NCBI RefSeq assembly: GCF_000510645.1
Contig: NZ_KI783301.1
Location: 893,873 to 957,872, forward strand
Source of the DNA: Thermicanus aegyptius DSM 12793
Lineage (GTDB): Bacteria; Bacillota; Bacilli; Thermicanales; Thermicanaceae
Direction: 5' to 3'
Length of the DNA: 64,000 nt
The notes under the pieces were generated by a model. The model did no database searches and was not told the DNA's origin. It saw only the letters and a list, made by a program, of their open reading frames with translations. Below, in pieces: positions 9,336 to 36,424 of the stretch (within the stretch, counting starts at the first letter, position 1; each line of letters starts with the position of its first letter). Position numbers and translations under genes: made by a program.

Positions 9336-9923
9336 ATGGGAGATTTGCCGCTGGAAGTGGAAAATCTAAACGCGGGCTATGAAGGGAAGGCGAAAGTGCG
9401 TCGTCTTGATTTTCAATTGAAGGAAGGAGAGATCGTCGGCCTCATCGGGTTAAACGGAGCAGGGAAGAGCACCACCATGAAGACCATCCTCGGTTTGCTG
9501 CCGAAAATGGGTGGGAGCATCCGATTTTGGGGAATGACGATGGAGGAGGAACCGTTACAGGTAAAGAGAAGGATCGCCTACATTCCGGAGATGCCCCTTC
9601 TTTATGACGAGTTGACCTTATGGGAACATCTTCAATGGGTGGCGATGGCCTATGGACTGGATCAGGCCGCCTTTGAGGCTCGGGTCGGCCCCCTCCTCAC
9701 GCAGTTCCGTATGGAGGGGGTAAAACACCACTTTCCATCTTCTTTTTCGAAGGGAATGAGGCAGAAGGTGATGGTGCTTTTCGCCTTTCTCATGCTGCCC
9801 ATCATTTTGGTTAGCGGCATCGCTTTTTTTCAAAGTTTGCCCCTCTATGTCCTTCCCCTCGTCTGGCTGGGAGGCTATCTTTTCACCGACCGGCTCCTTA
9901 TATGGAAGCTGAGGTGGATGTGA
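9336..9923 (+). pseudogene. Chimeric remnant: EcsA-like ATPase N-half fused to a permease C-tail
   Basis: Residues 1 to about 150 match the first part of EcsA-type ATPases: Walker A GLNGAGKST, then YIPEMPLLYDELTLWEH and the signature FSKGMRQK. The frame then changes abruptly into two hydrophobic segments (near 9780-9900) ending WKLRWM, like the end of a membrane subunit. Walker B, the D-loop and the H-loop are missing, so it cannot hydrolyse ATP normally. In Bacilli ecsA is followed by ecsB, a membrane protein. The simplest reading is an in-frame deletion joining the 5' part of ecsA to the 3' end of ecsB. No clear Shine-Dalgarno is seen before ATG 9336. Confidence 0.75.
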
Positions 9924-10864: not shown

Positions 10865-11123
10865 TTGACTTTGATGCTGCGGGTCTTTTCATCCGCCCGA
10901 AGGAACGGACAAAGGATTTACGCGCCAACCGAAGGCTTAGATGTACATAGGGTCCAGGGGAAGGATTCGTCACCCTGCTCGGAGAAGGGCGGGGTGATGT
11001 TTTTGGAAGGACGGTTGGAGGAAATGGGAGGAGAATGTCGAATAGGTTCCTAAGAATCGTTCCCCGTAGTTTCTATATCTCATGATAGAATGAATGATAG
11101 AATGAAAAATGAGGGATTGATCC
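10865..11123. repeat. Intergenic region with a 12-bp tandem duplication before jetD
   Basis: No supported gene is present. Just before jetD, ATGATAGAATGA is repeated twice without a gap (11082-11093 and 11094-11105). Each copy contains TAGAAT, a possible -10 element, but no matching -35 was found. The repeat may be an operator or promoter duplication for the defence operon. Confidence 0.5.
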
Positions 11124-12209
11124 ATGATCGGAACCATTCGCGCTTATTTACAAACGGTACAATCTAAAACGACCCGGCGGAAAAAGATCGCCGTTGATGA
11201 ATTGGAACGATCCATCATGGATGCATACGGATCGGTCGACCATTACCTGCAGGCCGGCGGTTACCAATCATTCTATCAGGGGGTAAAACAATTGGAGCAG
11301 GAAGGCTTGATCGCCCCCTTACGTTCCGCCCCTTTGAACGGCCGTACACCCCCCTTGTCCGCGTCCTACTGGCTCATGCCGCAGGGCGTCACGGCCCGAT
11401 GGAGTGAGGTACAGATGTTGCGGGTTGCCGATCGGTTGAATATGGAAAAATACCGGCAGCAACCATCCCTGCAGACCGATGAGGAATGGGGCCGCATTGA
11501 GCGAGTTTATCGCTTTCTCCTCCGCGCTTATGAACGGGAATGGGTTACGCGGGAAGAACGCTCCCTGGAATTGTTCGGGAATGAGAAATGGCTGGCGGGG
11601 AGTGAAGGAAATGCTTTTTTAAGTCGAATCGGGATCTCCTTGGAGGATTTGAAAGCGAGAGTTTATGGGGAGCCCTTTGTCTTCTGGCCCCGTCCCGGGG
11701 TCGACGTGGCGAAGGCGAGGGATGTGCTGATTGTGGAGAACCTCTCTTTTTTCCACACCGTAAAGAGGGTGCTGGAGTCAGGGAGGGAGATCGGAGGGAT
11801 AGAGCCTGATCTCCTCGTTTACGGGGAAGGAAAAAAGATCGAGTCCAGCTTTCCTTTTTTGTTCGACCTCATGTCGGGGACAGATCTTCGATCGGTGAGG
11901 GTGAACTATGTGGGAGACATCGACGCGGAAGGGTGGGGAATCTATGTACGCCTCGTCCGTCGTTATCCCGAGATGAATGTGCGCCTCGCCTTTCCCCTCT
12001 ATTCCGTCATGTGTGCGGTGTCGCGCCGCTTCGTTGAATTGCCGTCGTATCGGGATCAAAGCGAAAACGAAGAAGTGCTGCAGGATATCATTCGCTCCTT
12101 TACCGCGAACGGATTAGACTCGGAAGCGCGTCTTATTGCTGATTTATGGCGGCAGAGGAGACGTATCCCCCAAGAAGTCCTCACGTTTGAAACTTTCCTA
12201 CAGCGTTAA
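11124..12209 (+). CDS. jetD: Wadjet-type nuclease subunit JetD (Toprim fold)
   Basis: A 361-aa protein. The C-terminal half carries a Toprim-like metal site: Glu205 in VLIVEN, and Asp265, Asp267 and Glu269 in VGDIDAEG. This resembles topoisomerase VI subunit A and the JetD family (DUF2220-like). The tail has RRIPQE, similar to the conserved C-terminal motif of JetD proteins. The N-terminal ~100 residues look like a winged-helix arm. In known Wadjet systems JetD is the endonuclease that cuts circular plasmid DNA once the SMC motor has extruded it. Here it is the first gene, 21 bp before jetA. It starts at ATG 11124 with GAGGG upstream. The role is family knowledge; activity of this copy is inferred. 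Confidence 0.8.
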   Translation: MIGTIRAYLQTVQSKTTRRKKIAVDELERSIMDAYGSVDHYLQAGGYQSFYQGVKQLEQEGLIAPLRSAPLNGRTPPLSASYWLMPQGVTARWSEVQMLRVADRLNMEKYRQQPSLQTDEEWGRIERVYRFLLRAYEREWVTREERSLELFGNEKWLAGSEGNAFLSRIGISLEDLKARVYGEPFVFWPRPGVDVAKARDVLIVENLSFFHTVKRVLESGREIGGIEPDLLVYGEGKKIESSFPFLFDLMSGTDLRSVRVNYVGDIDAEGWGIYVRLVRRYPEMNVRLAFPLYSVMCAVSRRFVELPSYRDQSENEEVLQDIIRSFTANGLDSEARLIADLWRQRRRIPQEVLTFETFLQR

Positions 12210-12230
12210 TATATAGAGAGGTGCAGTTCG

Positions 12231-13730
12231 TTGAAAGAACGTTGGCAGGGTTTTAGCGAGCGTGTGAAGCGCTTAAATCCATTGTGGCAGCTGGGCGGCG
12301 GGATGAATCTGGGGGAATTGAACCCATATGCCCGGATGCTGGGACTTGCTTTATTGCTGGAAGTTTTTTTTAGGGAATTGGACAACAATCCGGCACGAAC
12401 GCGCCAAGACTTACTCCAGATCACCCAGGATTTGCTCCAAGAAATGCACTTGCAGGTATCGGATGTGCAGATCATCCGGCGTTTTGTGGACGGCATCTTG
12501 TGGAGCGGGACTCCGCAAATGCAAGAATCCTTCGTCGCCTATTTCTTTGATGAAAAAGAGGAACGGATGGCGGAACAGAGTTTCCGCTATTTACAGGAAG
12601 ACCGCCTGAACTCCCAGTGGGAGAGAGGGGGAAATACGGTTTATCAGCTGACGGATGAGTCGCTGGAGCTCATCTTCATGAGCCGTGAGGTTTTGCAGGA
12701 GCTGGAAATTGGCATCGACCAGCTCTATGTGCAGCAGCAGATCAAACGGGGCAATTATCGGAAAGCCCTTCGGGGGTTGGATGATCTCTTGGCCAAGGTC
12801 AACCGTTTGATCCAGCAGGAACAGGGCTATCAGGCGGATATGAAGCGGAATCCCAAAATCATTTTTCAACAGGGAGGACGATGGCGGTCGAAACGGGAAG
12901 AAGAGATCCACGCCCAGTTCGCCGAGGAGAAAAAGCGGTTCGATGAACTGCAAAGGGCTTTGCATCGGATGCAGGAGACCGATTCCGGTGAATGGTACGC
13001 TTTACAGGACAAGCTGGAGAGGACACGGGTTCAACATGACAAACTGGCGCAGGTCGTATTGGATAATATAGCACTGGAGGTTGAACTGCGCGTCCGCTAT
13101 CCGCAATTGTTCTGGAATCGTCCCTCCTATTCTTTCCGACGTAATGTATGGGAAGAGGGGATCTTGAAGGAAGGATTGGCCCATCCCGATCAGCTTTCTC
13201 TGTTTCTTGAGCCCCTCTTCTCGCCGGAGCCTCCCTTTCTTTTTCCGCTGGACTGGGGATGGGCCGAGCAGACGGAAAGCGTTTGGGAGGAGGAAGAGCG
13301 GGTAGAGGAGACGTCGGCGGAAATCGAAGCGTATGTGCCGCATAGGATCGATTTTGAACAGATTGCCGACGTTTGGCAGTCCATCTTTTTGAAATTGCTG
13401 GAAGAGGGACATTTCTCCCTCTCCGAGCTTGCCCACATCGGCCCGGAAGAACAACAAAAGTGGTTGCTCCAGAAGGAGACCTCCGATCTGTGGCTGATGT
13501 TCTTCGCCAGTCCCCTCGTCGTTCCGCCTTTGACGCCTGAAATGGCGGTGACGGATGATAGGCTGAAGTTGATCCAGGTTTTGCAGAACCGGGACCCACG
13601 CTTTCTCGCACTTACCGGCAAGCGCATTCGTGTGCAGATCGAACCGGGAAAACCGATGATTCGGTGGGAAAAAATGGCCATCACACCCTTTTACATGATC
13701 GTGGAAGAGGAGGGAAACCCCATTGATTGA
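12231..13730 (+). CDS. jetA: Kleisin-like subunit JetA / MukF-like
   Basis: A 499-aa protein. The N-terminal ~150 residues look like helical winged-helix domains (LTDESLELIFMSREVL). A long charged helical middle (about 165-275) and a C-terminal winged-helix-like part follow. This layout is that of bacterial kleisins such as MukF and JetA, which bridge the SMC heads. It begins at TTG 12231 behind AGAGAGGTG and overlaps jetB by 8 bp. No catalytic motif is seen. The assignment rests on position between jetD and jetB-jetC, size and domain layout rather than on a motif of its own. Confidence 0.7.
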   Translation: MKERWQGFSERVKRLNPLWQLGGGMNLGELNPYARMLGLALLLEVFFRELDNNPARTRQDLLQITQDLLQEMHLQVSDVQIIRRFVDGILWSGTPQMQESFVAYFFDEKEERMAEQSFRYLQEDRLNSQWERGGNTVYQLTDESLELIFMSREVLQELEIGIDQLYVQQQIKRGNYRKALRGLDDLLAKVNRLIQQEQGYQADMKRNPKIIFQQGGRWRSKREEEIHAQFAEEKKRFDELQRALHRMQETDSGEWYALQDKLERTRVQHDKLAQVVLDNIALEVELRVRYPQLFWNRPSYSFRRNVWEEGILKEGLAHPDQLSLFLEPLFSPEPPFLFPLDWGWAEQTESVWEEEERVEETSAEIEAYVPHRIDFEQIADVWQSIFLKLLEEGHFSLSELAHIGPEEQQKWLLQKETSDLWLMFFASPLVVPPLTPEMAVTDDRLKLIQVLQNRDPRFLALTGKRIRVQIEPGKPMIRWEKMAITPFYMIVEEEGNPID

Positions 13731-14466
13731 AAACGAACAGGTGCAACAAGCCGCGGCCCTTTTCTTCTCGCTGCTTAAACGAAAGGTGATCCCGTTAGAC
13801 GATCCCATCGTCCAATCGTATTTTCGTGAAGAGGGGGTTCGGGATGCGCTGCGCATTCTCGCCAACGAGTCGGGAACGGAGCTCTTGCAGACCCAGGATC
13901 GATTACATCTGGTGGCAAGGCCGCAGGGTTCCGTCTTTGCCACCTCGTTTACGCATATGAAGAATCGGTATGGGGAGTTGGAGACGAAGAAGTATTTCTA
14001 CCTGCAAAATGTGATCATGCTCGTTTTTTTGGCGGAAATCGATGTGGAGAACGGTCATCGCCTTCGCTGGGAGAATCAGGGGATCTCCTATTACCAATTG
14101 GAACGGCAGGTGGATTTGACGCTGAAACGCTGGCGGGAGAAAGAAGAGGAGTCGGAGGGTTGGTTTAGCCGCGATTGGGGGGTAGCCGTATCGGAAATGG
14201 CCGATCTCTGGGCTGCCCTCTCTACCCAGGATGAGACGGGCGAAAACCCTGCTTCCCTCACCCGCCGAACCCGCCTGGGGAATATCGCGTTGGCGATGCG
14301 GGTATTACGGGATGAGAACCTGGTCTATATCGCCGAGGATATCTTAAGGGTTACGCCTCGTCCCGAATTATACGAACGTTTGGAAGGAATTTATCACCGT
14401 CAGGACCGTTATCTGGAATTGCGGAATCTGATTCGTCGAAGCCTATCGGAGGAGGGGTTATTGTAG
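13723..14466 (+). CDS. jetB: Kleisin-associated subunit JetB / MukE-like
   Basis: A 247-aa, mostly helical protein with winged-helix character. It looks like the small Bacillota proteins annotated DUF6063, which occur next to large SMC-like ATPases. In MukBEF and Wadjet complexes the equivalent subunit (MukE/JetB) binds the kleisin as a dimer. The start is TTG 13723 with GAGGAGGGA upstream, overlapping the jetA stop. The jetC ATG follows its stop codon directly, so jetA, jetB and jetC are translationally coupled. Assignment is by context and size; no catalytic residues are visible. Confidence 0.68.
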   Translation: MIENEQVQQAAALFFSLLKRKVIPLDDPIVQSYFREEGVRDALRILANESGTELLQTQDRLHLVARPQGSVFATSFTHMKNRYGELETKKYFYLQNVIMLVFLAEIDVENGHRLRWENQGISYYQLERQVDLTLKRWREKEEESEGWFSRDWGVAVSEMADLWAALSTQDETGENPASLTRRTRLGNIALAMRVLRDENLVYIAEDILRVTPRPELYERLEGIYHRQDRYLELRNLIRRSLSEEGLL

Positions 14467-17400
14467 ATGCCGAGGATGGAACGCATTCGTATCACCGGGG
14501 TACGGTATGAAAATATGCGCAAACGGCACGAGGATACCCTTTTGGATCTGTGCAATGAGGACGGACCGCAACATACCCTGATCACCCTTGTGAACGGCGG
14601 AGGAAAAGGCCTGCTGTTGCAAATGATCTTTCAACTTCTTTTGCCCAAGACCACATGGGGAAAAAATGGGGAGAACCGCGTTGAAGCCTTGTTTTATAAC
14701 GAACGGAAGGCGTTTCGTCCATACACCTTTCATGTGGGCATCGAGTGGCGCCTCGATACGGAGCCACGATCCTGGTTGATGACGGGGATCGCCGTCACCG
14801 CCAAGGAAAAACAAAGAGTGGATGAGTCGGAGGAGAATCCCTCCGACATCCATTACATACTTTATACCCAGACTTATGGAAAACCCCACGATTGGGATCT
14901 GGCAAAGATGCCCCTTTACGATACGGAAAGACGGGAAGGGGTACAGATGGAGGAATTAAAAGCATTCCTTGATCGGCAGAAATCACTCTTTCAAACTTTT
15001 TCTCCCTCCCGTTTACGAGACTACTACGATTACCTCGCCTCTTTCGGAATTGAAAAGGGCGATTGGCAGGTGATGCGGAAAATTAACAAGGAGGAGGGCG
15101 GAGTGGAGGCTTTCTTCAGCGATGGCCAAGATAACGACGGTCTCTTTCGCCATAAAATTATCCCTACCATAAGCCAATACCTGCAGACGGAGGAATCGGA
15201 AGGGCTTGTCCCCCTTTTTCGTTCTTCGGTGAAGATCGCCCAGGATCTGCCGAAGTTAATGGCTCGGGAGGCTTCCTACCGAGAAATGCAAGAGGTGTTA
15301 AACCCCCTGAAGGATTCTTTGGAGAACGGCCTCTTGGAAAAAAAGAGGGTTGAAGAGCATCAGGAGAAAGGGGAGGTTTTGCTCGGCGCAATACATGGTT
15401 GGCAGGAAACGTTAGGCGCAGAGCTTGAAAAATGGGGAGAGGAGAAAGAGCGTGAAGAGGAACGACTGAGGGATTGGCTCTGGCAGGAAGCGAACGTAAG
15501 CTATGCGAAACAACATCGGAAAGTGAAGCAGATGAAAGATCGGCTCGAGCAAATCACGAAGCAGAAGATTTCAAAGGCCGAGAGGGTAGCCACGTTGGAA
15601 CGGGAGGTGAAACTCGCTCACCTCCACTACTTGTTGCGCCAATGGTCGGATCTGGGGAATCAAGAGAGGGAAACCCGAGAGGAGATCGAACAATTGCAAA
15701 AGTCCATGGAAGCTTCCCCCACCGCCCAGGAGCTGGAGCGCCTACGAAAACATCTTGCGGAGGAGTGGGATCGGGCTGCCTCCCTTTGGGCGGATCATAT
15801 CGCCCAGGTGGATCAGGCCAAAAGGGAGTTTCAGGATCTGCAGTTCGCCACGAAGGAGGAGATCAAACAAACCGACCGGCGTCTGGTGGAGAAAAAAGGG
15901 AGAGCAGGGACCTTATCTGAAAAAATGAAAGAGTTTAACGGCCAGGCCATCCGGATGGCCAATCGCTATGGCGCCAAAGTAAATACAGATCCGGAGGCGG
16001 TGCTCCGAGAACACCAGAGGGAGTATGAACAACGGAAAGAGAATCTGGCCGAATTAAAACGGCAGCTGGAGGAATATCAACGGGAGAAAGAGAGAGTTAT
16101 CGCAGAACAAAGCGCCCTCACTCAGGAAAAAGAACAGCATGAAAGAAAGCGGCTTGAGCTGGAAGAAGCGTACCATGCGCGCCGGAAAGGGGAAGAGTCG
16201 CTCTACATTAAACTCCGTTCGTTCTTTCCGGAGTGGTCCGTGGAGGATCGCGGCGGGATGGGTTGGTTGCAAGAGGCGGCACGGAGGATCCAGGAAAAAA
16301 TCACGAAAGTGGAGAGAGCACACAAAGAGGAGGAGCAAGCCTATTGGATGCACCAATTGGACCGTTCGCTCCAAACGGAGGAGTACTGGATTCCCAATCG
16401 GGATCTCGCTCAGCTTTATCGGCATTTGGAGGCGGCCAATATCCAGGCGGTGTATGGAACCGAATTTTTGAAAGATTTGTCGGCCGAAGAATCCCTCTCC
16501 TATATCCGTCGTTATCCCCTCTTACCCTATGGGCTTGTAATCTGGAAGGCGGACGAAAAGCGGCTCAAAACACTTTTCTCCTCTCCTAAAGCACGGGAGT
16601 GGTTTCTCCGCTCTCCGGTCCCCATCTATTCCCGGGAGATTGAACCTGCGTCCCACTCTCCGGTGGAGGGAGAAGGGGATGGCTGGTTCTCCGATCGGAC
16701 CGCCCTCTATCTCCATGATTTCGGCATGGAATTGGCGCTCGGCGATGAACGCTGGGTTCAATGGCGAGAGAGGTTGGAGGAAGAGGAAGCGCGCTTTAAG
16801 TCCGCCCTCGCCATGTATGAAGAACAGGTGAAAAGCTTACGGGAGATATGGGATGACATTCGGATGTTGCTCCGGGAAACACCGTCGGCGGTCTGGCAGG
16901 AGAGGATGGAGGAAGAAAAGGAATGGCTCACGGGCCTGGAGGATCGTTTGCAGCAGCTGGAATCCAGGGAGACGGAGCGTAAGGAGGCCGTCCGGAGAGT
17001 ATCGGAAAAAAGCCTGGAAACGGAAGAATTGATGCGAAGGCAAGAAGAGGCCATCGGGGAACTGAAGCGGTGGATCGACCGGGTTCTTCAATACAAAGGG
17101 GATATGAGGGAACGGGACGAAGTTCTGCAAGAGATCCATCGTCTGGAAACGGAAAAGAGGAGTTTGGAGGAGCGCTACACCCGGCTTGAGAACGGGTTAA
17201 ACGATTTGAAAGATAATGAGAGGAATTGGAGGGGGAAAAGGGAAAAGGAATTCGAGGAAGTAAAAAAGGTGCTGGCGGATGCCGCTTTTCCCGCCGGAAG
17301 TAAGGGAGAATACGAGGAACGGGTACGAATCATCAATGAATGGGTCGAGGTTGAAATCTCCTGGGAGACGGATACTCGGCGCTTGCTTCAATTCGCCCGC

Positions 17401-19008
17401 GAGGCGCTCCGCTTAAAACAGAGCGTCGAGGAAAAAGAAGGGAGGTTGCTCCTCCTTCAGGAAAGGTTGACCCAATTGAACCAGCGACGCAAAGAGAAAG
17501 AGACGGAAATGGAGGATGTGACGCCCGATTGGCCGCAAATCACGCCGATTGAGGGAGCGGAAGAGGTGTTAAAACGGAGATGGCAAATGGCGGAGAAAGA
17601 ATACGGGGAAGAACAGAAACAGCTTCAGAAGCTGGAAAGGGATTTTGAGCGCGCCGATTCCGCCTGCTCCACCGAACAGGAGCATTTGCTTCAAGTGGCA
17701 CAAGAGGTGTTGCACCGGTACGGCAAGGAAGCAGCTCCTTGGGAAGAGATTTCATTGGAGTTGAAAGAACAAGAGATCGTGGAAGGAAAGGCAAAAAGCA
17801 CCATCCATCTCCACGAGGTGGAACAGATTCTCGACGATTTGAGACAAAAGATCGGCCGCCTGGATAACAATCAGAAGCGGATGGGAGATCAGGGAATTCG
17901 CCTGAAATTAACCTTAGAGATCCCGCAGGCCCTGATGGAATCGGTGAAACGGGAGCCGGGCAGGGCGGTGGAGGAGTGGATCGAAGCCCATAAACGGTTC
18001 AAAGAGCAATTGGATCTTCTGAAGGGAGCCATGGAAAGGGAGCGTTCCCGCCTCCTGCAGAAACTGGAAGGGTTGTCGTGGGATGCCACGTTGAAGGAGA
18101 ATCTGAAACAGGCGATCCACGAATTAGACCTAAATGACTGGAAGCAGTCCCGCGATGTTTTAGAGAGCATGATCCTACATGCGGCGGAAGAGATGAACCG
18201 GCTGCAAGAGGATAGGAAACGGGCCGAGGAGGCACGGGATACCTGGGTGGAAAGGGCGTCATACCGGGTGATCCAGATCATTCGGGCGCTCAAAAAGATG
18301 GAAAGCAGCATGGTGATCCTCAATCAAAACAAGCACCGGTTTCCCCTCGTGCAGATGAACCTGAAGAGAGGGACCTTTCCCGAACAACCGGAAGAGATTA
18401 AACCGGAATTGAATGATTTCTTCTTGCGAACCATGGAGAGGCTGATCAAAACGTATGGAGAGATCGAAAACGTGCCCGATGCGGAGTGGGAAACGGCCGT
18501 CAATGACGGTGAAGTGGTCCATGTGGCCTTCCACCGCCGCTTCCCGACTTTGATGGTATACAAGCCGCAAACGACGAACAGTTTTCTTTATGAGACTCCC
18601 AAAGGGCATCATTATACGGAGTGGCAGACGCTCAACAAGGGATCATACACCGAGGCGAAGGGCAGCGGCGGGCAGTTGCTTGCGGCGCGGACGATCGTGA
18701 TGATGATGTTAATCACCTATCGCAGGCAGCAACAGGCTAAACAATGGACGGTCCTGATTTCAGACAATCCGTTTGGCCAGGCCGTATCGGAACACATCCT
18801 CGATCCCATTTTCGCCATAGCGGAAAATCTCCATTTCCAATGGATCGTCGTATCACCGCCGGAATTGATTAAGCTGGATGTAAGCCGCCGCTTCCCGGTT
18901 TACTGGGAATTAAAACTTCACCCGTTCGCGCATGGAGAACAGATTGTGGAAGAGTTGCACCACGGCGGAAGGCAGTATACCGATGAATTATCCCTCTTTG
19001 ATTTTTAA
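14467..19008 (+). CDS. jetC: Large SMC-like ATPase JetC / MukB-like
   Basis: A 1513-aa SMC-type motor. The N-terminal head has a P-loop at residues 42-48 (VNGGGKG). Long charged coiled-coil arms run from about 250 to 630 and 760 to 1340. A globular hinge-like segment lies near 640-760 (YPLLPYGLVIW). The C-terminal head has signature GSGGQ at about 1398 and Walker B VLISDNPFG, with Asp1433. The residue after the P-loop lysine is Gly48 instead of Ser/Thr, and the residue after the Walker B Asp is Asn1434 instead of the usual catalytic Glu. It is longer than the roughly 1100-residue JetC of many Wadjet operons. It should load on DNA with JetA and JetB and extrude loops for JetD. Confidence 0.82.
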   Translation: MPRMERIRITGVRYENMRKRHEDTLLDLCNEDGPQHTLITLVNGGGKGLLLQMIFQLLLPKTTWGKNGENRVEALFYNERKAFRPYTFHVGIEWRLDTEPRSWLMTGIAVTAKEKQRVDESEENPSDIHYILYTQTYGKPHDWDLAKMPLYDTERREGVQMEELKAFLDRQKSLFQTFSPSRLRDYYDYLASFGIEKGDWQVMRKINKEEGGVEAFFSDGQDNDGLFRHKIIPTISQYLQTEESEGLVPLFRSSVKIAQDLPKLMAREASYREMQEVLNPLKDSLENGLLEKKRVEEHQEKGEVLLGAIHGWQETLGAELEKWGEEKEREEERLRDWLWQEANVSYAKQHRKVKQMKDRLEQITKQKISKAERVATLEREVKLAHLHYLLRQWSDLGNQERETREEIEQLQKSMEASPTAQELERLRKHLAEEWDRAASLWADHIAQVDQAKREFQDLQFATKEEIKQTDRRLVEKKGRAGTLSEKMKEFNGQAIRMANRYGAKVNTDPEAVLREHQREYEQRKENLAELKRQLEEYQREKERVIAEQSALTQEKEQHERKRLELEEAYHARRKGEESLYIKLRSFFPEWSVEDRGGMGWLQEAARRIQEKITKVERAHKEEEQAYWMHQLDRSLQTEEYWIPNRDLAQLYRHLEAANIQAVYGTEFLKDLSAEESLSYIRRYPLLPYGLVIWKADEKRLKTLFSSPKAREWFLRSPVPIYSREIEPASHSPVEGEGDGWFSDRTALYLHDFGMELALGDERWVQWRERLEEEEARFKSALAMYEEQVKSLREIWDDIRMLLRETPSAVWQERMEEEKEWLTGLEDRLQQLESRETERKEAVRRVSEKSLETEELMRRQEEAIGELKRWIDRVLQYKGDMRERDEVLQEIHRLETEKRSLEERYTRLENGLNDLKDNERNWRGKREKEFEEVKKVLADAAFPAGSKGEYEERVRIINEWVEVEISWETDTRRLLQFAREALRLKQSVEEKEGRLLLLQERLTQLNQRRKEKETEMEDVTPDWPQITPIEGAEEVLKRRWQMAEKEYGEEQKQLQKLERDFERADSACSTEQEHLLQVAQEVLHRYGKEAAPWEEISLELKEQEIVEGKAKSTIHLHEVEQILDDLRQKIGRLDNNQKRMGDQGIRLKLTLEIPQALMESVKREPGRAVEEWIEAHKRFKEQLDLLKGAMERERSRLLQKLEGLSWDATLKENLKQAIHELDLNDWKQSRDVLESMILHAAEEMNRLQEDRKRAEEARDTWVERASYRVIQIIRALKKMESSMVILNQNKHRFPLVQMNLKRGTFPEQPEEIKPELNDFFLRTMERLIKTYGEIENVPDAEWETAVNDGEVVHVAFHRRFPTLMVYKPQTTNSFLYETPKGHHYTEWQTLNKGSYTEAKGSGGQLLAARTIVMMMLITYRRQQQAKQWTVLISDNPFGQAVSEHILDPIFAIAENLHFQWIVVSPPELIKLDVSRRFPVYWELKLHPFAHGEQIVEELHHGGRQYTDELSLFDF

Positions 19009-19198: not shown

Positions 19199-19227
19199 TT
19201 GACATCTTTTGTGAACCTCTATACACT
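19199..19227 (+). promoter_or_regulatory. trp operon promoter
   Basis: A perfect TTGACA (19199-19204) and TACACT (19222-19227) are separated by 17 nt. Transcription would start near 19234, giving a leader of about 295 nt before trpE that contains the TRAP site and terminator. Confidence 0.75.
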
Positions 19228-19371: not shown

Positions 19372-19419
19372 AAGGTTAGCAAAGCAGAGCAGAGAAGAGC
19401 ATAGCGGAGATGAGGAGAG
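19372..19419 (+). promoter_or_regulatory. TRAP (MtrB) binding site in the trp leader RNA
   Basis: Ten NAG triplets occur at exact 5-nt periodicity with 2-nt spacers: AAG, TAG, AAG, GAG, GAG, GAG, TAG, GAG, GAG, GAG, starting at 19372. The 11-subunit TRAP protein of Bacillus binds just such G/UAG repeats when charged with tryptophan. ATCCCC at 19365-19370, just upstream, is complementary to GGGGAT at 19447-19452 in the terminator. TRAP binding could therefore block an antiterminator and let the terminator form. The gene for TRAP is not in the window. Confidence 0.85.
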
Positions 19420-19443
19420 CGAATGGAATACCCTAGAACGAAC

Positions 19444-19472
19444 GCCGGGGATTCGCTATCCCCGGCTTTTCT
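19444..19472 (+). terminator. trp leader attenuator terminator
   Basis: GCCGGGGAT (19444-19452) pairs perfectly with ATCCCCGGC (19458-19466) around TCGCT, followed by TTTTCTT. It lies between the TRAP site and trpE, so it is the attenuator. Confidence 0.88.
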
Positions 19473-19528
19473 TATCTCTCTATGCCCTCTTCTCGCCGAT
19501 TCCAAATGACCTGAGAGGAGTGGAAACC

Positions 19529-31578: not shown

Positions 31579-32169
31579 GTGTTCATCTACTTTTATCCGA
31601 CACACGATCATGGAACCCATCTCCTGCAGGAAGAGTGGCATGGAGAGAAATTCCTGGCGTACACCTACCGGGTGATCCGCATTTGGGAACTTAGCCCCCA
31701 AGAGATCGTGAACAACGGATGGGTGGGGTTATACCCCCTTCTCCCCCTGATGAGAAGAAATACGCCACGGAAAATACGCAAAGAAGCTCTTCAGTATGGC
31801 GTGGATGCGATCATGAAGGTTACCGATATTGCGCTTCGGCGAGATTTGCTGGCCGTTATGGGGTTTTTGGCCGGCGAAATTTACCCCAAAGAGTGGATCC
31901 ATTCGATGATAAGGAGGGAAATGATCATGGAATCTCCCATTTACCGGGATTGGATGAGGGAAGAACGGGAAAAAGCGATGCAGGAAGGCATGATAGAAAG
32001 TATAAAAGAAGGCATAAAAGAAGGTATGAAGGAAGGCATAAAAGAAGGCATGAAGGAAGGCATTAAACGGACTGCGAGGAATATGTTGGAGAAAGGTTTC
32101 GACGAGGACACAATCATGGAAGTGACGGGACTTACCAAAGAGGAGCTCCTCCTTTTGAAAAAACAATAG
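31579..32169 (+). pseudogene. Rpn-type nuclease / putative transposase, N-terminally truncated
   Basis: The 196-aa frame matches the middle and end of the Rpn (recombination-promoting nuclease, PD-(D/E)XK) family: YRVIRIWELSPQEIV, GLYPLLPLMR, then MREEREKAMQEG followed by repeats of KEG[IM] and a C-terminal EVTGLTKEELLLLK. The N-terminal ~100 residues with the catalytic core are missing; an in-frame stop lies at 31564 and the zinc-ribbon gene occupies the space. GTG 31579 lacks a good ribosome site. It is most likely a remnant. Confidence 0.7.
31998..32068 (+). repeat. 12-bp coding tandem repeats (KEGI/KEGM)
   Basis: About six imperfect copies of a 12-bp unit (AAAGAAGGCATA or AAGGAAGGTATG types) encode alternating KEGI and KEGM. 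Such runs are common near the C-terminus of Rpn-family proteins and can change copy number by slippage. Confidence 0.8.
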
Positions 32170-32303
32170 GCGGTTCATTTGATGATCTAAGCCTGAACCC
32201 ACAGGCCCCTTTTCCTTTCCTGAGAATGCCCCGGATGCGGCGTACGGAAGGGATCTTGAAAAGCAATCGCATGGACATTTTTATCCTCCGCCGGAGACGA
32301 GAG

Positions 32304-36334: not shown

Positions 36335-36424
36335 CTTACGAAAAAGGCAAACCTATTGAAAAATAGGGACGCAAAGCCACGGGCCTACAGCTACTAAGCC
36401 ATGGCAGCCGGTTTCCGAAGAAGC
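36335..36424 (+). ncRNA. Cyclic di-GMP-I (GEMM-I) riboswitch
   Basis: The conserved core is visible: GGCAAACC (36346), a CTATT-GAAA-AATAG stem capped by the GAAA tetraloop, GGGACGCAAAGCCACGGGCC (36366-36384), and CCATGGCAGCCGG (36399-36411). These form the three-way junction that binds c-di-GMP. A terminator hairpin follows at 36445, and the first gene encodes a c-di-GMP phosphodiesterase-type protein, so the switch probably gives feedback control. Confidence 0.93.

What the first reader, a model, noticed from the sequence alone, without database searches (positions are those of the whole stretch)
11124..19008. Four-gene SMC plasmid-defence operon of divergent Wadjet type, order jetD-jetA-jetB-jetC
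Seen: a Toprim/TopoVI-A-like protein (VGDIDAEG), a kleisin-like 499-aa protein, a small 247-aa winged-helix-like protein and a 1513-aa SMC-like ATPase, coupled by an 8-bp overlap (jetA/jetB) and direct abutment (jetB/jetC). Known: Wadjet (JetABCD), MksBEFG and EptABCD cut or silence plasmids. Inferred: this is the same class. The nuclease gene comes first and JetC is far longer than in common type I operons. JetA and JetB look unlike the named DUF families, so this may be a separate subtype.
Basis: partly seen in the sequence, partly recalled or inferred. Interest (0 to 1): 0.85.

Follow-up and report, generated by a model that had tools for sequence, protein, structure and literature searches.

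The report
Type III Wadjet with odd ATPase
This is a complete four-gene bacterial anti-plasmid machine of an already catalogued kind (Wadjet type III), but its motor protein belongs to a distinct branch in which two amino acids normally needed to burn ATP are always replaced, so how it works is an open and testable question.

Summary
In detail: window 11124-19008 encodes jetD-jetA-jetB-jetC as described (8-bp A/B overlap, B/C abutting). All four proteins match PADLOC Wadjet type III models (419, 652, 324 and 764 bits). JetA models as a MukF-like kleisin, JetB as a JetB/MukE-like KITE, and JetD keeps its Toprim active site. The separate-subtype claim is half right. All type III JetC aligned lack the Walker B catalytic glutamate (D-N in 52/52; D-H in one further plasmid copy). 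This branch also lacks the Walker A Ser/Thr (GKG, not GKT/S). Type I Wadjet needs a working JetC ATPase (PMC10586767), so here either hydrolysis is done differently or sensing is not hydrolysis-driven. Most sampled members of one genus in the branch keep jetABC under purifying selection without jetD. Verdict: known system, new mechanistic variant.

The parts
11124..12209 (+). jetD, 361 aa: Toprim/TopoVI-A-like nuclease (JetD3); E205, D265, D267, Q350-E351 conserved
   Evidence: PADLOC PDLC00591 419 bits; Pfam JetD_C 33.7 bits; invariant residues across type II/III alignment
12231..13730 (+). jetA, 499 aa: kleisin (JetA3), TTG start
   Evidence: PADLOC PDLC00565 652 bits; AF2 model pLDDT 79.5, best matches MukF Z 10-11.5, also Wadjet-II JetA 9qe0_E
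13723..14466 (+). jetB, 247 aa: KITE tandem winged helix (JetB3), TTG start, 8-bp overlap with jetA
   Evidence: PADLOC PDLC00573 324 bits; AF2 model pLDDT 89, best matches JetB 8as8_C and 8dk1_E (Z 9.5), Nse1 and MukE
14467..19008 (+). jetC, 1513 aa: SMC ATPase (JetC3)
   Evidence: PADLOC PDLC00584 764 bits; head motifs
14605..14610 (+). JetC Walker A K47-G48 codons (GGGKG; Ser/Thr of the P-loop replaced by Gly)
18763..18768 (+). JetC Walker B D1433-N1434 codons (catalytic Glu replaced by Asn)
10968..10999 (+). intrinsic terminator-like hairpin ahead of jetD; homology to the Ca. Carbobacillus altaicus copy begins at 10972

Best explanation
A chromosomal Wadjet type III operon. JetA (kleisin), JetB (KITE) and JetC (SMC) should form a ring complex that engages small circular DNA, and JetD (Toprim nuclease) should cut it, so transformation by small plasmids is blocked. 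Shown here: gene content, order, fold classes of JetA and JetB, an intact JetD active site, and membership of a deep type III branch. Inferred by homology to type I: complex assembly, DNA loading and plasmid cleavage. In this branch the nucleotide step is probably unconventional. JetC keeps the P-loop lysine, Walker B aspartate and SGGQ signature, so ATP-dependent head closure is likely. It lacks the usual Mg2+-ligand Ser/Thr and the catalytic Glu, so hydrolysis is slow, uses other residues, or is not needed for each sensing event.
For: All four proteins score best, by hundreds of bits over other types, against type III models. Structure matches give a kleisin and a KITE, with JetB nearest the solved Wadjet JetBs. 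JetD catalytic residues are invariant with type II and other type III JetDs. Order and sizes fit type III. The JetA-only tree puts all 18 GKG loci on one side of a branch, SH-aLRT 100, 0 of 500 shuffles as clustered. G48 is 18/18 in the branch against T/S 34/34 outside; D-N is 52/52. Further members agree. Profile alignment places K47-G48 on type II GKS and D1433-N1434 on type II D-E. All four Gly codons are used for G48, so the residue itself is selected. The operon's homology with the Ca. Carbobacillus altaicus copy starts just upstream of jetD, in a different neighbourhood, as expected of a mobile defence cassette.
Against: No plasmid-restriction test for this branch was found, and none was done here. 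A review notes that work is nearly all on type I, where DNA cleavage needs ATP and a functioning JetC ATPase (PMC10586767). jetD is missing from 15 of 17 JetC-positive genomes of one genus in this branch, so JetABC of this branch may have another role. The JetC head was not modelled, since its two lobes lie too far apart for the 1200-aa limit, so the active-site reading rests on sequence and profile alignment. The Walker B profile alignment of the window branch against type II alone is weak (probability 6%); it is firm against other type III (99.9%), which align to type II at 72%.
Confidence: 0.82

Rival explanations
1. JetABC of this branch is mainly a chromosome-organising SMC complex (MksBEF-like), with JetD an optional attachment; the window keeps JetD but plasmid defence is secondary.
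For: In genus g6, 17 sampled genomes carry the branch's JetC and only 2 carry JetD3. JetC there is intact with median dN/dS 0.12. Two of these loci share a thrS-GNAT-jetABC neighbourhood. A second jetD-less group exists in the other half of type III (L052-L055, L059).
Against: The window and all nine full-length branch loci from outside g6 that were read in full (L048, L049, L050, L118-L122, L139) have jetD next to jetABC. The window's jetD heads the operon with its active site intact, and its copy in the related MAG is equally conserved.
Confidence: 0.12
2. The system is dead or dying: loss of ATPase residues reflects decay.
For: Two usually essential positions are substituted.
Against: The substitutions are fixed in about 42 replicons across at least two classes, use all four Gly codons, and sit in mostly intact ~1500-aa ORFs; purifying selection is measured in genus g6. 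All four window genes are intact.
Confidence: 0.03
3. The operon is an anti-phage rather than anti-plasmid SMC system.
For: Other SMC-like defence systems (Lamassu, whose LmuB carries a Walker B E-to-Q change; PMC10586767) also have anti-phage activity.
Against: Composition is JetABCD, not Lamassu. Phage collections hold no relative, which says nothing of targets.
Confidence: 0.03

Closest known systems
Wadjet type III (JetABCD-III; PADLOC JetA3/B3/C3/D3)
   Same: All four families, D-A-B-C order, ~1500-aa JetC, D-N-P-F-G Walker B, JetD Toprim residues
   Different: Window branch has GKG Walker A instead of GKT/S, GSGGQ signature with a 7-residue insertion instead of WSGGE, and no His at the end of the H-loop strand (VSPP)
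Wadjet type II (N. vireti JetABC, PDB 9qe0)
   Same: Kleisin, KITE, SMC and JetD; the JetA model also matches 9qe0_E
   Different: JetC ~1390 aa with canonical GKS and DE; jetD after jetC in L135-L138; only marginal sequence similarity (PDLC00551 11 bits)
Wadjet type I / MksBEFG / EptABCD
   Same: Same subunit plan; JetB model is closest to type I JetB 8as8_C and 8dk1_E
   Different: No match to JetA1/JetB1/JetC1 models; type I needs a functioning JetC ATPase (PMC10586767)
Lamassu LmuB
   Same: Natural loss of the Walker B Glu (E to Q) in an SMC/Rad50-like defence ATPase (PMC10586767)
   Different: Different system; E to N here, plus loss of the Walker A Ser/Thr, with kleisin and KITE partners

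Membership tests
Wadjet type III | Four genes matching JetA3, JetB3, JetC3 and JetD3 models | tested here: met
   652, 324, 764, 419 bits
Wadjet type III | Adjacent co-directional genes in the order usual for the type | tested here: met
   D-A-B-C in the window and in 37 of 40 sampled loci with an adjacent jetD
Wadjet (all types) | JetA kleisin and JetB KITE fold | tested here: met
   MukF and JetB/MukE are the best matches; Wadjet JetA chains also appear
Wadjet (all types) | JetD Toprim catalytic residues | tested here: met
   E205, D265, D267, Q350-E351 invariant with type II and III JetD
Wadjet types I and II (mechanism) | SMC ATPase with canonical Walker A (GKS/T) and Walker B (DE) | tested here: not met
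   GKG and D-N. All other type III examined also lack the Glu, so this does not exclude type III membership, but it sets the ATPase apart from type I/II
Wadjet (all types) | Blocks plasmid transformation by cleaving small circular DNA | not testable with these tools
   Needs an experiment
Wadjet type I or II | Match to type I or type II models for JetA, JetB and JetC | tested here: not met
   no JetA/JetB/JetC type I hits; only weak JetD1/JetD2 (27 and 17 bits) and JetC2 (11 bits)

The most novel reading that the evidence does not exclude
Type III Wadjet as a whole, and this branch doubly so, does not sense plasmids by the canonical cycle of ATP-hydrolysing loop extrusion. JetC would act as an ATP-binding gate, or use a non-canonical hydrolysis site, with JetABC in some lineages freed from its nuclease for another job.
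Probability: 0.35. Interest if true: 0.8.

Novelty: new variant of a known kind. Interest (0 to 1): 0.5.

Why it matters
The accepted model of Wadjet is that ATP-driven loop extrusion measures DNA size and triggers JetD, and it rests on type I (and now type II). A natural branch whose SMC lacks both the Walker A Ser/Thr and the Walker B Glu, conserved in about 42 replicons, gives a direct test of whether hydrolysis is really needed to recognise plasmids. If it is, the branch must reveal another catalytic arrangement in an SMC head. The jetD-less members give a natural comparison for how a defence SMC turns into, or from, a chromosome-organising one.

Tried and rejected
Separate subtype on grounds of gene order and JetC length: rejected. 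H-loop His loss as a third lesion: set aside, since type II JetC has no clear His there either. Sequence search of JetC and JetD against PDB found no relative. The type I marker PF11855 is nearly absent in the class sample, so type I JetC was not aligned directly. An empty-site comparison was not possible because no close relative of the host is held. The literature search for a description of the type III Walker B change found none in the held library, which lacks Doron 2018 and the type II structure paper, so absence is not proven. Mis-binning of the Ca. Carbobacillus altaicus contigs (MAG listed at 5% contamination) cannot be excluded; 93-94% DNA identity of the operon against 45% protein identity of TrpE fits either recent transfer or mis-binning, but the different upstream genes favour transfer of a cassette.

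Full report
Observation. The four ORFs are present at the stated coordinates with the stated couplings: jetD 11124-12209, jetA 12231-13730, jetB 13723-14466 (8-bp overlap), jetC 14467-19008 (abutting). An intrinsic terminator-like hairpin lies at 10968-10999, before jetD, and the trp operon begins at 19520 behind its own leader. GC content of the operon is like that of its surroundings.

Identity. Each protein matches Wadjet type III models of PADLOC far above all other types: JetD3 PDLC00591 419 bits, JetA3 PDLC00565 652, JetB3 PDLC00573 324, JetC3 PDLC00584 764. Pfam gives JetD_C for JetD and DUF6063 for JetB, both above cut-off, and nothing useful for JetA or JetC. NCBIfam gives nothing useful. 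An AlphaFold model of JetA (pLDDT 79.5) finds MukF chains first by Foldseek (E 1.5e-3) and by VIA-align 2 (Z 11.5), and also Wadjet-II JetA 9qe0_E; several of these alignments span more than one domain with large rmsd, so the domain match rather than the overall arrangement is what is shown. The JetB model (pLDDT 89) finds E. coli and P. aeruginosa JetB first by VIA-align 2 (Z 9.5, 4.2-4.7 A over about 170 residues), then Nse1 and MukE. JetD keeps E205, D265, D267 and Q350-E351, which are invariant in 27 aligned type II and III JetDs.

Order and length are ordinary. In 40 type III loci with an adjacent jetD fetched from the window's class and phylum, 37 read D-A-B-C and three (L120-L122) read A-B-C-D; JetC is about 1450-1520 aa throughout.

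What is unusual. Aligning JetC showed that the Walker B motif of every type III JetC in the alignment is D-N-P-F instead of D-E (52 of 52), while four type II JetCs have GKS and DEAFAG. In the window and 17 other loci the Walker A residue after the lysine is Gly (as in NGGGKG), where the other 34 have Thr or Ser. The same 18 share an SGGQ signature preceded by a 7-residue insertion, where nearly all others have WSGGE. A tree built from JetA alone, which holds none of these residues, puts exactly these 18 on one side of a branch with SH-aLRT 100. Every further member found has GKG: in all about 42 replicons, including genomes of a second class and a 1.08-Mb Priestia megaterium plasmid (NZ_CP045273), whose Walker B reads D-H-L-F-G. 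Profile-profile alignment places K47-G48 on type II GKS (probability 95%) and, through the other type III JetCs, D1433-N1434 on type II D-E. G48 is written with all four Gly codons and N1434 with both Asn codons, so the residues themselves are under selection.

Mechanism. For type I Wadjet, cleavage needs ATP and a functioning JetC ATPase, and the proposed reading of plasmid size is total loop extrusion (PMC10586767). The same review notes that Lamassu LmuB generally carries E to Q at this position and may hydrolyse ATP slowly or not at all, and that most work so far was on type I. By the same argument type III JetC, with Asn, and this branch, which also lacks the Mg2+-ligand Ser/Thr, should be poor hydrolases unless other residues take over. 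K47, D1433 and SGGQ remain, so nucleotide-driven head closure is still likely. I therefore commit to a plasmid-cleaving JetABCD complex with an unconventional nucleotide step (0.82 for the system and its target class, 0.35 for a truly non-canonical sensing cycle). The ATPase reading is inference from sequence; the gene content, folds and conservation are tool results.

jetD-less relatives. In one genus (g6), 17 sampled genomes carry the branch's JetC but only two (G296, G385) carry JetD3; weak JetD hits in G187 and G003 belong to separate type II systems. Their JetC is intact with median dN/dS 0.12. A second group without an adjacent jetD lies in the other half of type III (L052-L055, L059). 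JetABC of type III can thus be kept without its own nuclease, as in MksBEF.

Mobility. The nearest copy, in the MAG of Ca. Carbobacillus altaicus (same order), is 93-94% identical in DNA from window 10972 to the contig ends, but its upstream genes differ and TrpE is only 45% identical. This fits transfer of the operon as a block, or less likely mis-binning. The host genome also holds a fragment of a type I JetD near transposase genes.

Limits. No function was tested. The JetC head could not be modelled as one piece. The literature library lacks the founding and type II structure papers, so the type III Walker B change may have been noted elsewhere.

Noticed in passing
Genus g6 genomes, e.g. 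L039-L042, L044-L046: jetABC of this branch kept intact without jetD in 15 of 17 JetC-positive genomes; in two loci (L039, L045) the neighbourhood is thrS-GNAT-jetABC. Looks like an MksBEF-style conversion within type III.
   Followed up: partly
L052-L055, L059 (family f36): A second group of type III jetABC without an adjacent jetD, in the GKT/S half of type III.
   Followed up: partly
Host genome G000:C1:1108371-1108667 (L131:4372-4668): Fragment of a type I JetD (Toprim part only, PDLC00533 74 bits) next to transposase ORFs: relic of an earlier type I Wadjet.
   Followed up: partly
window 19377-19466: Leader of trpE with a run of (G/T)AG triplets spaced by 2-3 bases followed by a GC-rich terminator: looks like a TRAP-controlled trp attenuator; promoter-like TTGACA-17-TACACT at 19199-19227.
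   Followed up: no
window 9336-9923: ABC ATPase ORF that breaks off after the signature motif and runs in frame into a hydrophobic membrane-protein-like tail: apparent deletion fusion of an ATPase gene with its permease gene.
   Followed up: partly
window 11071-11105: Short palindrome TTCTAT-n8-ATAGAA and a repeated ATGATAGAATGA just upstream of jetD; possible operator.
   Followed up: no
window 31579-32257 and L184:2771-3771: A gene (PADLOC 'putative invertase' by a weak match; 88% DNA identity between the two copies) lies 19 kb from the operon in the window but directly upstream of jetD in the Carbobacillus MAG.
   Followed up: partly
window 36336-36419: c-di-GMP-I riboswitch (82 bits) directly upstream of an HD-domain protein gene (36480).
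   Followed up: no
L139 (NZ_CP045273.1, 1.08-Mb circular plasmid): A complete D-A-B-C operon of this branch is carried on a megaplasmid, with Walker B D-H instead of D-N.
   Followed up: partly
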